From Chloroflexota bacterium (lineage in GTDB: Bacteria > Chloroflexota > Chloroflexia > Chloroheliales > Chloroheliaceae): DNA of 64,000 bases. Position numbers and translations under genes: made by a program. The first letter of the stretch is position 1, and each line of letters starts with the position of its first letter. Where the stretch lies: positions 1 through 64,000 of the forward strand of contig JAQBPB010000007.1 in the NCBI GenBank assembly GCA_028287745.1, written 5' to 3'. The notes under the pieces are model-generated. The model did no database searches, was not told where the DNA came from, and saw only the letters and a list, made by a program, of their open reading frames with translations. Below, piece after piece: positions 18,277 to 26,819 of this stretch.

Positions 18277-18404
18277 AAGGAAAGAGAACACTAACAAAAA
18301 AATAAGCCAACCATTTGGCTTTTAGGATGTGGATTTGCTTTCTTTATTATAGCGGCCCGCCAATTGAAGTAAATATCCCGGGGGTGCCAAATCTAAAGGA
18401 AAAG

Positions 18405-18434
18405 GAAAAGGAAGAAGCCGGAATGTGTTACAAT
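18405..18434 (+). promoter_or_regulatory. 30-bp element, copy B; probable dus promoter
   Basis: This is the second copy of the 30-base element at 15644-15673. It ends in GTGTTACAAT, with TACAAT as a possible -10 box about 34 bases before the dus ATG at 18468. Both copies keep the same polarity relative to the gene or remnant downstream. Confidence 0.5.
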
Positions 18435-18467
18435 ATGAGGCCGGAAGCAAATTTTAAGGGAGTTAAG

Positions 18468-19463
18468 ATGGACAAGAATATAAATAAACCGACCGAAATT
18501 CAAAATAATTCAAAGAAATTTTCGTGGACCGACCTGCCGGAGGGCTATGAGTGCCTTTCACCGATGGCCGGGGTTACCGACACGGCCTTTCGCCAGATTT
18601 GCAAGCGCCATGGCGCGGACGTGGTCTTTACCGAAATGGCAAGCGCCAACATGATGCTGAACGCGCCCACCCGCAATGCCGCTTTTTTGCATTACGAGGA
18701 ATGGGAACGGCCGATTATCGGCCAGATTATGGGCGGCGATGCAAAGACCATGGCCGAGGCGGCGCGGGTAATCGAGGACATGGGCTTTGATGGGGTAGAC
18801 GTCAATATGGGCTGCCCGGAAAAGAAAATTGTGGGTAACGCCTGCGGTTCATCGTTGCTTAGAGACGCCGATACCGCTGCCCGTATTGTCGAAGCTATGG
18901 CTAATGCGGTTAATATCCCGGTATCGGTTAAAATGCGTTCGGGCTTTTACGATAGTGAAATTGTCCAGCCTCAGTTCGCCATCCGGATGCAGGAAGCCGG
19001 GGCCAAAGCGCTGGCAATTCACCCGCGCACCAAAGAACAGGCTTACCGGGGCAGCGCCGACTGGACGGTTACCCGCCTGATTGTCGAAAATGTCCAACTG
19101 CCGGTCGGCGGCAGCGGTGACGTAACCGACCGGGCCGCTATCGAACGGCTGCGGGCTGAAACCGGGGTGCAGGGTATCTGGGTCGCGCGCGGCGCGATGG
19201 GCAATCCCTGGATTTTCGAGCGGGAGCGGACCGAGCGCCCGCCGCTGGCCGATGTAATCGCGACTGCCCTGGAACATGCCCGCTTGATGGTTAAGTATAA
19301 AGGACCGCATGGCATGATTGAAATGCGCAAGCACCTGACCTGGTACTTTAGCGGGTTCCAGGGAGCCGCCGCCCTGCGGGAGCAAGTTAAAACCGTCAGC
19401 ACCTACGAAGACCTTGAGCGCCTCATCGAGGATCACCAGCTTTTAGAGCGCTTCGCAGCTTGA
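18468..19463 (+). CDS. dus: tRNA-dihydrouridine synthase
   Basis: From the ATG at 18468 (AAGGGAG 5 bases upstream) the product is 331 residues, the family's normal size; an upstream in-frame start at 18315 would add a low-quality 51-residue extension. The FMN barrel motif SPMAGVTDTAFRQ is near residue 31, the conserved VNMGCPEKKIVGNACG near 116, KMRSGF near 157, IHPRTKEQAYRG near 187 and GSGDV near 218. Dus enzymes reduce specific uridines in tRNA with NADPH. The single Cys in the GCP motif is the presumed general acid. The subgroup (DusA, B or C type) is not assigned. Confidence 0.95.
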   Translation: MDKNINKPTEIQNNSKKFSWTDLPEGYECLSPMAGVTDTAFRQICKRHGADVVFTEMASANMMLNAPTRNAAFLHYEEWERPIIGQIMGGDAKTMAEAARVIEDMGFDGVDVNMGCPEKKIVGNACGSSLLRDADTAARIVEAMANAVNIPVSVKMRSGFYDSEIVQPQFAIRMQEAGAKALAIHPRTKEQAYRGSADWTVTRLIVENVQLPVGGSGDVTDRAAIERLRAETGVQGIWVARGAMGNPWIFERERTERPPLADVIATALEHARLMVKYKGPHGMIEMRKHLTWYFSGFQGAAALREQVKTVSTYEDLERLIEDHQLLERFAA

Positions 19464-19687: not shown

Positions 19688-20653
19688 ATGATGAGTGAGC
19701 AGAATATGAGGGTCGTGATTATCGGAGGTGGACCGGCCGCATTAACCGCTGCAATTTATTCCAGCCGGGCAAACCTGGATACCACGGTTATTGCCGGGTA
19801 TCAATCGGGCGGCCAGCTGATGCTTACCAGTGATGTAGAAAACTTTCCTGGTTTCCCCGAAGGGATTATGGGACCGGAATTGATGGACGGTATGCGCCGC
19901 CAGGCTGAACGCTTCGGCAGTAAATTTGTAGATGCCGATGCTACCAAAGTGGACTTCTCAGGCCGGGTAAAGAGAGTTTTTGTTGAAGATGATGTTTACG
20001 AAGGCGAAGCGGTAATTGTCGCTACCGGGGCCAGCGCTATGTGGCTGAACCTGGCCAGCGAAGAACGCTTGCGCGGCCGGGGTGTTTCAAGCTGCGCTAC
20101 CTGTGACGGCTTCTTCTTCCGGGGTAAAGAGATTGCGGTAGTTGGCGGCGGTGATAGCGCTTTAGAAGAAGCACTCTTCCTGACCAAGTTCGCCACTAAA
20201 GTAATTTTGCTGCACCGCCGGGACAAATTCCGCGCTTCCAAGATCATGCAGGAACGGGTCTTTAACCATCCCAAGATTGAAGTAGTGGTAGATACCGCTA
20301 TCGACGAAATTCTGGGTGAGAACAAAGTCGAAGGCGTGCGGGTCCAAAACCTCAAGACCGGTGAGACCAGGGAAATCAACCTGGAAGGCGTCTTTGTCGC
20401 TATCGGCCACCGGCCCAACACTGACATTTTCAAGGGCTGGTTGGACATGAACGACAAGGGCTACCTGAGCGTTGTCAATGAATCCGAGACCAACATCAAG
20501 GGTGTCTTTGTCGCCGGAGACGTTTATGACTACCGCTACCGCCAGGCTATTACGGCGGCGGCCAGCGGCTGCAAAGCATCGCTGGATGCCGAACACTACC
20601 TGGAAGCCCTGACCGGTGAACCGGCGGAAATCCTGACCGCCCAGAACTGGTAA
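19688..20653 (+). CDS. trxB: Thioredoxin reductase (NADPH)
   Basis: At 321 residues it is a low-molecular-weight thioredoxin reductase. The FAD-binding motif GGGPAALTAAIY is near residue 13, the redox-active pair C136-A-T-C139 lies in SSCATCDGFFF, the NADPH motif GGGDSALEEALF is near 153 and the C-terminal FAD motif GVFVAGDVYDYRYRQ near 275. It passes electrons from NADPH to thioredoxin in the cytosol. Two adjacent ATGs (19688 and 19691) follow AGAAAGG. It is followed by a strong terminator, so it is probably transcribed alone. Confidence 0.97.
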   Translation: MMSEQNMRVVIIGGGPAALTAAIYSSRANLDTTVIAGYQSGGQLMLTSDVENFPGFPEGIMGPELMDGMRRQAERFGSKFVDADATKVDFSGRVKRVFVEDDVYEGEAVIVATGASAMWLNLASEERLRGRGVSSCATCDGFFFRGKEIAVVGGGDSALEEALFLTKFATKVILLHRRDKFRASKIMQERVFNHPKIEVVVDTAIDEILGENKVEGVRVQNLKTGETREINLEGVFVAIGHRPNTDIFKGWLDMNDKGYLSVVNESETNIKGVFVAGDVYDYRYRQAITAAASGCKASLDAEHYLEALTGEPAEILTAQNW

Positions 20654-20666
20654 TAAATACTTTTGT

Positions 20667-20700
20667 CGCCCGCTATTCATTCGAGTAGCGGGCGTTTTTT
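20667..20700 (+). terminator. Rho-independent terminator after trxB
   Basis: CGCCCGCTA (20667-20675) pairs with TAGCGGGCG (20686-20694), followed by six T. Confidence 0.95.
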
Positions 20701-20737
20701 AACTTAACTGTTTGTGAAAGGGCAAAGGCTTTACTTC

Positions 20738-21730
20738 ATGTCTACGAATCCGTTCGATAAATTTGATGGTCAGGCCCAGGGCGTCTTGACTGCCAGTTAC
20801 CAGATTTTGATGCACGCCCGCCACAGCCAGCTAGATGTCGAACACCTGCTGATGGCCCTTCTCATGCAGCCACAAGGTTTTGCCACCCTGGCCCTGGAAC
20901 AGCTAAAAGTAGACCGGGGCCTGGTCCTGCTGGCAGTTGAACAAAGCCTCGACCGGTTCCCGCAAAGGCCGGATGCCCCTAACACCAGCGGCATTAACGT
21001 GAGCATGTATTTCTCACCCCGTTTGCAACAAATTTTCAGCCAGGCTGCGTCCGGCATGCAGCAGAACCAGGCCGAATTTATCACGCCACGCGACTTATTA
21101 CTGGCGATTACCGCCAGCCCAGACGACCCGGCCGCAAACCTGCTCAAAGGGTTTGGTTTGGAGCAAGAAAGACTGGCCCAAATCCAGCCCGAAAGCCCTG
21201 TAGAGGTCAAGTTGCCCCTGGAAAACCCGGTCCAGGCCGGGCAACCGTCTGAAAGCGCCGGGCTAACCCACTTTAACGAGTCGGGCCGGGCCAGGATGGT
21301 CGATGTATCGGAAAAAGATGTAACCGGACGCCGGGCGATTGCGCGGGGCGAAATCCGGATGCTGCCGGAAACACTGGCTTTAATCCGGGAAGGCCGGGCC
21401 AAAAAGGGTGATGTGCTGGCCGTGGCCCAGGTAGCCGGGATTATGGCGGCTAAAAAGACTTCCGAAATCATCCCGATGTGCCACCCCCTGATGCTTACCG
21501 GGGTCGATTTGCGGTTTGAATATGACCTGGAGCGGTCGGCGGTATTAATCGAAGCGGAAGCAAAGACCAGCGGCCAGACCGGGGTTGAAATGGAAGCACT
21601 GACCGCCGTCAGCGCGGCCGCGCTGACAATCTATTATATGGTTAAAGCTACCGATAAAGGGATGCAGATTGAGGCTATTCGCCTGGCCCATAAAAGCGGC
21701 GGGAAAAGTGGTATTTACCAGGCCGAATAA
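20738..21730 (+). CDS. Clp N-terminal domain fused to cyclic pyranopterin monophosphate synthase (MoaC)
   Basis: From the ATG at 20738 (AAAGG 9 bases upstream; a GTG at 20714 is less likely) the product has 330 residues. Residues about 6-145 form two Clp N repeats as found at the N-terminus of ClpA/Clp[28 protein letters not shown], then [12 protein letters not shown] and [10 protein letters not shown]. After a linker (about 150-173), residues 175-330 form a complete MoaC domain: [61 protein letters not shown] and GGKSGIY. MoaC makes cyclic pyranopterin monophosphate from the MoaA product in molybdenum cofactor synthesis. No other moa gene is in the window. Clp N domains normally bind adaptors or substrates, so the fusion may place MoaC under Clp-related control or add a dimerising module; this is inference. 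Confidence 0.93.
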
Positions 21731-24830: not shown

Positions 24831-26819
24831 TTAGCGGGTTACCAGGACATTGTAGCCTTCCTGGATTAGCTGATCATCCGAAATTCCCAGCAGGTCCAGG
24901 ATTTCGGCGATAAGCCCGGCTTTTTTCTCGGCATCCCTTTTGGACCAGGTCCGGCTTTTTATTTCTAAAAAGTAGTCAGGCTGGGCCGGGGTCAGCATCT
25001 GGTCAATATTGATGGCAAAGTCGGTACCCTTATAACTGAAACGGTTACGGCGGCGCAGCTTGACCAGCTCGCGTTCTTCCAGCGGGTTAAGATACTCCCG
25101 GTAAAACCGTAATGACTGGTCCGGGGTAGCCGTTAAGCGAGAGCGGTTCAGGATGACCGAACGAGGAAATTCGCGCTCGGAAGCCGCGCCAATCAGGGTC
25201 AGCCGGAACCGGCTGCGGGGAGTCGGGCGGCCTTCTTCGTCCAGGTAAATATCCTCGCGCAATCGAAGCTGTTCAACGTGCTGATCGCCAAAAGCGAAAT
25301 AGGTATCGTACTGGCGATAATGCGAGGTCTTGGTAATCTTGAACAGGCTCGAGTCTTTGAGTACCGCTTCTACGCGGCCCAAATCCTCCAGTTGCGCTTT
25401 GACCTGTACCTCGAAGCTTTCTTCCTGGTTAAGGCCGCCCAGCGCCAGGAGTTTGCGCACCACGTTCCCTTCACGGGCCACCAGGAAGCGGTCGATTTTC
25501 TCGGCTACTTCTGTGGCCTGGCGGGCCAGGTCTTGTTCGTCCAGCTTCAAAAGCTGGCGGTCGCGCAAAAGCCATTCGCCGTTACAAATTACGTGCTGCA
25601 CATCGGTAGACTTGGCGACATAGACGAGTTGCGAATAAATTGCTTCGGGGTCACGGCTAAAGCGTGGGGTGTTATGCATGGGTTGCAGGTCCACCACAAT
25701 GAAGTCGGCCCGCTTGCCTTCTTCCAGCGAGCCGGTTATATCACTGATGTGGAGCGCTCGGGCGCTGCCAATAGTCGCCAGGGCCAGGGCCTCGCGGGCG
25801 GGTAGGGCGGTCGGGTCGCCGGTAAAGCCTTTTGCCAGGAGGGCAGCCAGGCGCGTTTCCTCAAACATGTCCAGGTCGTTATTGCTGGCCGGTCCGTCGG
25901 TCCCGATACCGACATTTACGCCGACCTGTAACATTAGCGGCACCGGGGCGACCCCGCTTGCGAGTTTCAGGTTGCTGGTCGGGTTATGAGCGATACCGGC
26001 CCCGGCGTGTTGCAAGGTCCGCATTTCGCCTTCATCAATATGGACACAATGGGCCGCGATTACTTTAGCATCCAGGATATTCTGGCGTTTGACCCAGGGC
26101 ACCACCGGCATACCGTTTTCTTTGCGGCTGTTCTCGACTTCCAGGGCCGTTTCAGCAATGTGAATATGCAAAGGCACATCAAATTCCTGGGCCAGGGCGG
26201 AACAGGCTTTCAGGATTTCAGGCGGGCAGGTATAGGGCGCATGCGGTCCGACCGCCGGAACGATCAGGGGGTGACCTTTCCAACGCTGGATGAATTCCCG
26301 GCAGTTGGCCAGACCATCTTCATAGGAAGCGGCGTCGGGTGTGGGGAACTTCATTATCGACTGGGCCAACACTCCCCGCATACCGGCTTCGGCGGTAGCC
26401 TGGGCAATCTCATTTTCGAAATAATACATATCGGCGAAACAGGTCGTGCCGCCTTTAATCATTTCAGCGCAGGCTATTTTTGTACCCAGCCGGACAAACT
26501 CGGGATTAACAAATTCGCGCTCGACCGGCATCATATAGCCCATCAGCCAGACATCCAGGCGCAGGTCGTCCGCCAGGCCGCGCAATAGGGTCATCGGGAC
26601 ATGGGTATGGGCATTGATAAAGCCGGGCATCAGGGCTTTGCCGGTGAAATCAATCACCTCGGCGGCCTCATAGCGGCTTTGTAACTCGGCGGCCGGACCC
26701 ACTCCAACGATTTTGTCGTCCTTTACGGCGACCGCCCCATTTTCGATCAACCTCCGGCTATCGTCCATCACAACGACGGTCCCGCCACTGAACAAATAAT
26801 TAACCTTTTCTCTGCTCAT
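24831..26819 (-). CDS. Amidohydrolase (MTA/SAH deaminase-like) fused to a C-terminal CYTH domain
   Basis: The 662-residue protein has two parts. Residues about 8-445 are a full metal-dependent amidohydrolase of the 5-methylthioadenosine/S-adenosylhomocysteine deaminase group: metal ligands His71 and His73 in NAHTHVPMT, His193 in GPHAPYTCPP, His218/His220 in LHIHIAET, His257 in AAHCVH and Asp308 in GTDGPASNND. Residues about 469-655 are a CYTH (triphosphate tunnel) domain: FEVQVKAQL, YDTYF, QLRLRED, VKLRRRNRFSYKG and FLEIKS. The family's ExExK signature reads ExQxK (E470, Q472, K474). CYTH enzymes act on triphosphates such as ATP or thiamine triphosphate. A deaminase joined to a triphosphate-binding domain suggests that nucleotide binding or turnover is linked to nucleoside deamination; the reaction is unknown. 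The start follows weak ribosome binding sequence. Confidence 0.9.
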   Translation of the reverse strand: MSREKVNYLFSGGTVVVMDDSRRLIENGAVAVKDDKIVGVGPAAELQSRYEAAEVIDFTGKALMPGFINAHTHVPMTLLRGLADDLRLDVWLMGYMMPVEREFVNPEFVRLGTKIACAEMIKGGTTCFADMYYFENEIAQATAEAGMRGVLAQSIMKFPTPDAASYEDGLANCREFIQRWKGHPLIVPAVGPHAPYTCPPEILKACSALAQEFDVPLHIHIAETALEVENSRKENGMPVVPWVKRQNILDAKVIAAHCVHIDEGEMRTLQHAGAGIAHNPTSNLKLASGVAPVPLMLQVGVNVGIGTDGPASNNDLDMFEETRLAALLAKGFTGDPTALPAREALALATIGSARALHISDITGSLEEGKRADFIVVDLQPMHNTPRFSRDPEAIYSQLVYVAKSTDVQHVICNGEWLLRDRQLLKLDEQDLARQATEVAEKIDRFLVAREGNVVRKLLALGGLNQEESFEVQVKAQLEDLGRVEAVLKDSSLFKITKTSHYRQYDTYFAFGDQHVEQLRLREDIYLDEEGRPTPRSRFRLTLIGAASEREFPRSVILNRSRLTATPDQSLRFYREYLNPLEERELVKLRRRNRFSYKGTDFAINIDQMLTPAQPDYFLEIKSRTWSKRDAEKKAGLIAEILDLLGISDDQLIQEGYNVLVTR

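What the first reader, a model, noticed from the sequence alone, without database searches (positions are those of the whole stretch)
20738..21730. Clp N-domain fused to MoaC
A complete double Clp N repeat is joined to a complete MoaC with all conserved motifs. Clp N domains are known as docking sites of AAA+ unfoldases or, alone, as adaptor-like proteins; MoaC is a hexameric enzyme of molybdenum cofactor synthesis. I know of no described function for this pairing. It may tie cofactor synthesis to Clp proteolysis or use the domain to bind partners of the pathway.
Basis: partly seen in the sequence, partly recalled or inferred. Interest (0 to 1): 0.8.

Follow-up and report, generated by a model that had tools for sequence, protein, structure and literature searches.

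The report
Clp N-domain–MoaC fusion enzyme
In two groups of Chloroflexota bacteria the MoaC enzyme of molybdenum-cofactor synthesis has independently gained the protein-binding N-domain of a Clp unfoldase, which suggests a real but untested link between cofactor synthesis and protein quality control.

Summary
The fusion is real. One 330-aa ORF (20738-21730, +) encodes a two-repeat Clp N-domain, a disordered linker and MoaC, and it is the genome's only MoaC. All three genomes of the genus carry it; the two sampled sister genera of the family (probably Chloroheliaceae) have plain MoaC. Five species in another Chloroflexia family (one probably Kallotenue papyrolyticum) have the same architecture. 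Trees reject a single origin for the N-domains (p-AU 1.8e-5) and for the MoaC domains (9e-5). The window's N-domain was copied from a lineage-specific ClpC-type unfoldase. In both sets the N-domain is under purifying selection, has lost residues that anchor it to the AAA+ ring or bind phosphoarginine, and keeps a hydrophobic client groove. Best reading: a MoaC oligomer with peptide-binding arms, client unknown. The active-site Asp (E. coli D128) is Tyr, one base away; 154 other aligned MoaCs keep Asp. This is an assembly error or a loss of activity. moaA, moaE and molybdoenzymes are present. No held paper describes the pairing. New variant of known parts; mechanism inferred.

The parts
20738..21730 (+). 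Clp_N-MoaC fusion gene, 330 aa, ATG start (a GTG at 20714 is the longer mechanical start), stop included
   Evidence: ORF list; Pfam; orthologues in two congeners start at the same place
20816..20950 (+). Clp_N repeat 1
   Evidence: PF02861, 42.8 bits
21056..21181 (+). Clp_N repeat 2, degenerate
   Evidence: PF02861, 22.5 bits, cut-off 20.7; helices in the model
20765..20767 (+). Asp10, at the place of ClpC Thr7 (ring anchor / pArg2 pocket)
   Evidence: alignments; T7D phenotype in PMC12583610
21089..21091 (+). Arg118, at the place of ClpC Glu106 (pArg1 pocket)
   Evidence: alignments; PMC12583610
21188..21262 (+). Linker, low confidence in the model
   Evidence: pLDDT below 50 over residues 153-180
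21296..21703 (+). MoaC domain
   Evidence: PF01967 1-136/136, 192 bits; only match in the genome; TIGR00581 205 bits, cut-off 141.5
21635..21637 (+). Codon TAT (Tyr300) in place of the active-site Asp (E. coli MoaC D128)
   Evidence: 154 other aligned MoaCs have Asp; 1eks is the D128A variant
20667..20704 (+). Intrinsic terminator between trxB and the fusion
   Evidence: 12-pair stem and T run
19688..20653 (+). trxB, thioredoxin reductase; conserved upstream neighbour in congeners, not part of the Moco pathway
   Evidence: TIGR01292; synteny
18315..19463 (+). dusB-like tRNA dihydrouridine synthase (the mechanical start is too long); conserved neighbour
   Evidence: PF01207; synteny

Best explanation
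A genuine two-domain protein. The C-terminal MoaC is the cPMP synthase of molybdenum-cofactor synthesis (shown: family membership and, in seven of eight species, every active-site residue checked; its hexamer is inherited knowledge of the family). The N-terminal double Clp_N domain was copied from a Clp unfoldase gene (shown for the window lineage: a ClpC-type paralogue special to this bacterial family; in the second lineage another, ClpC1-like source). It no longer serves an AAA+ ring (inferred: ring-anchoring and phosphoarginine residues are degenerate in both lineages) but keeps the hydrophobic groove with which ClpB and ClpC N-domains bind unfolded protein (inferred from sequence). On flexible linkers around a MoaC oligomer these arms would capture a partner or client protein. 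Which client (a Moco-pathway protein, an apo-molybdoenzyme, or a general unfolded client) is unknown.
For: Intact fusion in eight species of two families. Two origins: one clade rejected for N-domains (p-AU 1.8e-5) and for MoaC domains (p-AU 9e-5). N-domain under purifying selection in both sets. Sole MoaC of the window genome beside moaA, moaE and molybdoenzymes. Model matches ClpB N-domain 1khy at TM 0.89-0.90 and MoaC structures. Groove positions stay hydrophobic in all eight but one cell (G045 F2->S), while T7, K85 and/or E106 are replaced. That groove binds unfolded protein in ClpB/Hsp104 and casein in ClpC (PMC12583610).
Against: No binding data. The N-domain evolves much faster than MoaC (47-57% against 89-92% identity), as a loosely constrained appendage would. 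The two sets share no obvious linker or surface motif. MoaA shows no matching tail. The window copy lacks the active-site Asp. Hydrophobic positions could be kept for folding alone.
Confidence: 0.4

Rival explanations
1. Proteostasis coupling: the Clp_N arms act as a decoy or sensor that titrates Clp adaptors, phosphorylated substrates or N-domain-binding peptides, or bring MoaC to ClpCP, so that Moco synthesis follows proteolysis load.
For: Free Clp_N proteins can act as sponges: mycobacterial ClpC2 binds cyclomarin and shields ClpC1 (PMC10030653). ClpS is present in the window family. Set B keeps both phosphoarginine Glu residues.
Against: T7, K85 and, in set A, E106 are replaced. ClpS is absent from the f11 genomes searched, so it is no common partner. 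McsB was not found, but the control failed too.
Confidence: 0.2
2. Hitchhiker: the Clp_N domain was added by duplication, is tolerated, and at most helps folding or stability of MoaC.
For: Fast divergence of the N-domain and linker; absent from most relatives; no Moco-related neighbours.
Against: Two independent gains of the same domain at the same end; dN well below dS with open frame and fold kept.
Confidence: 0.22
3. Tether to MoaA: Clp_N holds MoaA so that its labile product passes straight to MoaC, as the MOCS1A-MOCS1B fusion may do in animals.
For: MOCS1A-MOCS1B fusions exist and a MoaA-MoaC complex has been proposed (PMC3602415); moaA is separate and single-copy here.
Against: MoaA of fused and unfused species shows no distinguishing tail.
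Confidence: 0.1
4. In the window species the MoaC part is dead (D128Y) and the protein survives only as a Clp_N-bearing oligomer.
For: Tyr where 154 other aligned MoaCs have Asp; the equivalent Asp137 contacts GTP in M. tuberculosis MoaC2 (PMC3602415); 1eks is the D128A variant.
Against: It is the only MoaC while moaA, moaE and molybdoenzymes are kept; the other active-site residues are intact; one base in a draft assembly of 137 contigs can be an error or a rare allele.
Confidence: 0.08

Closest known systems
MoaC, cyclic pyranopterin monophosphate synthase (PF01967, TIGR00581)
   Same: Full-length domain over the curated cut-offs; K51, H77, E112, E114, K131 kept
   Different: Extra N-terminal Clp_N domain; window copy has Tyr for the active-site Asp
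Clp_N domain of ClpC/ClpB unfoldases (PF02861)
   Same: Two-repeat fold, ClpB N-domain TM 0.89-0.90; 51% identical to the N-domain of the own-genome ClpC-type paralogue
   Different: No AAA+ modules; ring-anchor and phosphoarginine residues changed
ClpC2-type partial ClpC homologues (M. tuberculosis ClpC2)
   Same: Clp_N domain on a non-AAA+ protein
   Different: ClpC2 has an N-terminal four-helix dimer domain and acts as repressor and cyclomarin sponge (PMC10030653); here the partner is an enzyme at the C-terminus
Bifunctional MoaC fusions (MoaC/MoaB, MoaC/MobA, MoaC/MOSC; animal MOCS1A-MOCS1B)
   Same: MoaC joined to another module in one chain
   Different: Those partners are Moco-related; here the partner comes from protein quality control

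Membership tests
MoaC (cPMP synthase) | Curated model cut-offs | tested here: met
   PF01967 189.7 bits (cut-off 27); TIGR00581 205.3 (cut-off 141.5)
MoaC (cPMP synthase) | Active-site Lys51, His77, Glu112, Glu114, Lys131 (E. coli numbers) | tested here: met
   All kept in the window copy
MoaC (cPMP synthase) | Active-site Asp128 | tested here: not met
   Tyr in the window copy only; Asp in the seven other fusions
MoaC (cPMP synthase) | Hexamer and cPMP-forming activity | not testable with these tools
   Needs biochemistry
Clp_N domain (PF02861) | Two repeats over cut-off with the N-domain fold | tested here: met
   42.8 and 22.5 bits; ClpB N-domain match
Hsp100/Clp unfoldase | AAA+ modules | tested here: not met
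   No AAA+ match; only Clp_N and MoaC
ClpC N-domain function | Ring-anchor and phosphoarginine residues T7, K85, E32, E106 | tested here: not met
   Set A: D, Q, E, R; set B: S/A, Q/G, E, E
ClpC2-like protein | N-terminal four-helix dimer domain before Clp_N | tested here: not met
   Clp_N starts within about 10 residues of the N-terminus
Named bifunctional MoaC fusions (MoaC/MoaB, MoaC/MobA, MoaC/MOSC) | Second Moco-related domain, model cut-off reached | tested here: not met
   All three models match only over MoaC and stay below cut-off

The most novel reading that the evidence does not exclude
The Clp N-domain was twice recruited onto MoaC to make an ATP-independent, oligomeric client-binding enzyme: a regulated link between protein quality control and molybdenum-cofactor supply, for example holding apo-molybdoenzymes or tuning Moco synthesis to folding stress.
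Probability: 0.25. Interest if true: 0.75.

Novelty: new variant of a known kind. Interest (0 to 1): 0.5.

Why it matters
A Clp N-domain on a cofactor enzyme, gained at least twice and kept under selection, would be a substrate-recognition module working without its AAA+ motor, and could show how Moco synthesis is tied to protein folding or turnover. One carrier is probably a cultured type strain (Kallotenue papyrolyticum), so it can be tested.

Tried and rejected
Frameshift or assembly join: rejected, intact in two congeners and five species of another family. Merger of adjacent genes: unfused relatives G003 and G004 have no Clp_N beside moaC and no free Clp_N gene among their hits. Other long MoaC frames in about 500 Chloroflexota genomes: no Clp_N; most look like upstream frame read-through. 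MoaA tail as the partner: no difference. Moco operon context: none. McsB: inconclusive, the control failed. Papers on the pairing or on MoaC D128A activity: none held.

Full report
What is there. The window ORF 20738-21730 (+) is 330 aa: two Clp_N repeats, a linker and a full MoaC domain. It is the only MoaC in the genome. A strong intrinsic terminator separates it from trxB upstream; the order dusB, trxB, fusion is kept in the two congeners.

Spread. Same genus: G001 (contig MKTJ01000077.1, strain 54-19) and G002 (CADDZM010000016.1) carry 328-aa orthologues. Other genera of the family: G003 (matching Ca. Chloroheliaceae L227-5C) and G004 have plain MoaC of about 160 aa and no Clp_N beside it. 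In the class survey (158 genomes) long frames pointed to family f11: G045, G092, G093, G094 and G095 are fused, G091 is not. G045 (4.5 Mb, 4 contigs) is probably Kallotenue papyrolyticum JKG1 (4,475,263 bp in 4 contigs, PMC4669399); this rests on size and contig number only. No other fusion was seen in about 340 further Chloroflexota genomes (the match list was truncated, so coverage is incomplete), and a full-length profile found only G000 and G045 in a 400-genome sample. In GTDB only the two congener contigs matched over the whole length, but that scan reaches close relatives only.

Two origins. N-domains of the window lineage lie within a clade of ClpC-type paralogues special to this family (98/95). 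The own-genome copy (C108:110013-110408, 879 aa) has AAA+ modules and a UVR motif and, by eye, an LGF motif where ClpC has its ClpP loop. The f11 N-domains lie with canonical ClpC and free Clp_N proteins. One clade for all fusions is rejected (p-AU 1.8e-5). The MoaC domains also do not form one clade (p-AU 9e-5): the window MoaC groups with its unfused family relatives (99/95), the f11 ones lie elsewhere. The same pairing therefore arose at least twice.

Constraint. Among congeners the Clp_N part is 47-57% identical (dN 0.33-0.53, dS 0.94-1.87) and MoaC 89-92% (dN 0.04-0.06); in f11 the N-domain dN is likewise below dS. dS is near saturation, so the ratios are rough, but well under 1.

Structure. 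In the AlphaFold model (16 sequences) the N-domain and most of MoaC are confident, residues 153-180 and 183-196 are below pLDDT 50 and pTM is 0.49, so the relative placement of the domains is not defined. Fold matches: MoaC structures, and ClpB N-domain 1khy (TM 0.89-0.90, about 1.9 A).

Residues. In ClpC the N-domain anchors to the ring through T7, R9 and K85, reads phosphoarginine through E32 and E106, and binds unfolded protein in a hydrophobic groove (PMC12583610). Set A fusions: T7 to D, E106 to R, K85 to Q (already Q in the donor). Set B: T7 to S or A, K85 to Q or G, both Glu kept. Groove positions F2, V13, F80 and L88 stay hydrophobic in all eight but one cell (G045, F2 to S). The column labelled E32 in the table is shifted by one; the invariant Glu is E35 of the window protein. 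I infer a domain freed from ring docking that can still bind hydrophobic segments.

Active site. Window MoaC has Tyr300 where 154 other aligned MoaCs, E. coli included, have Asp (D128); K51, H77, E112, E114 and K131 are kept. The equivalent Asp137 of M. tuberculosis MoaC2 contacts GTP in a superposed model (PMC3602415), and the D128A variant of E. coli was crystallised as 1eks. From memory, D128A was reported inactive; I could not check that paper. GAT to TAT is one base; error and real change cannot be told apart here. moaA, moaE and molybdopterin oxidoreductases are present, so Moco is evidently used.

Mechanism. Best supported: a MoaC oligomer with Clp_N client-binding arms. Shown: fusion, two origins, constraint, fold, residue pattern. 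Inferred: oligomer, groove binding, benefit. Unknown: client. ClpS occurs in the window family but not in the f11 genomes searched, so a common ClpS role is unlikely. MoaA shows no matching tail.

Verdict. Real, not described in the searched library, a new architecture of known families. Interest is moderate because the mechanism is open; convergent gain is what lifts it above a curiosity.

Noticed in passing
window 21635-21637: Tyr codon in place of the otherwise invariant active-site Asp of MoaC (E. coli D128); one base from Asp. Real change or assembly error cannot be told.
   Followed up: partly
G008:C202:17810-19480: A 643-aa frame with at least six Clp_N repeats; an unusual tandem Clp_N array.
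   Followed up: no
G001:C93:3309-4171 (L163) and G002:C1:12086-12463: Free double Clp_N genes (about 130-150 aa) next to clpC, two in tandem in G001.
   Followed up: no
G001:C58:425501-425881 (L164): A 208-aa frame in which a short N-terminal stretch that looks like a ribbon-helix-helix or CopG-type DNA-binding segment by eye precedes a double Clp_N domain, reminiscent of the self-regulating ClpC2.
   Followed up: no
G000:C108:110013-110483 (L149); G000:C44 and G001:C22: Family-specific ClpC-type AAA+ paralogues with a distinctive N-domain (one on a plasmid of Ca. Chlorohelix); donor group of the window fusion.
   Followed up: partly
G000:C60:6213-7754 and the same family in G001, G002, G045, G091, G092, G095: Molybdopterin oxidoreductase frames of about 1,050-1,160 aa with one in-frame TGA; possibly selenocysteine formate dehydrogenases.
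   Followed up: no
window 24831-26819: Amidohydrolase (Pfam residues 63-416) with a long C-terminal extension that looks CYTH-like by eye (no Pfam match); conserved beside the fusion in congeners.
   Followed up: no
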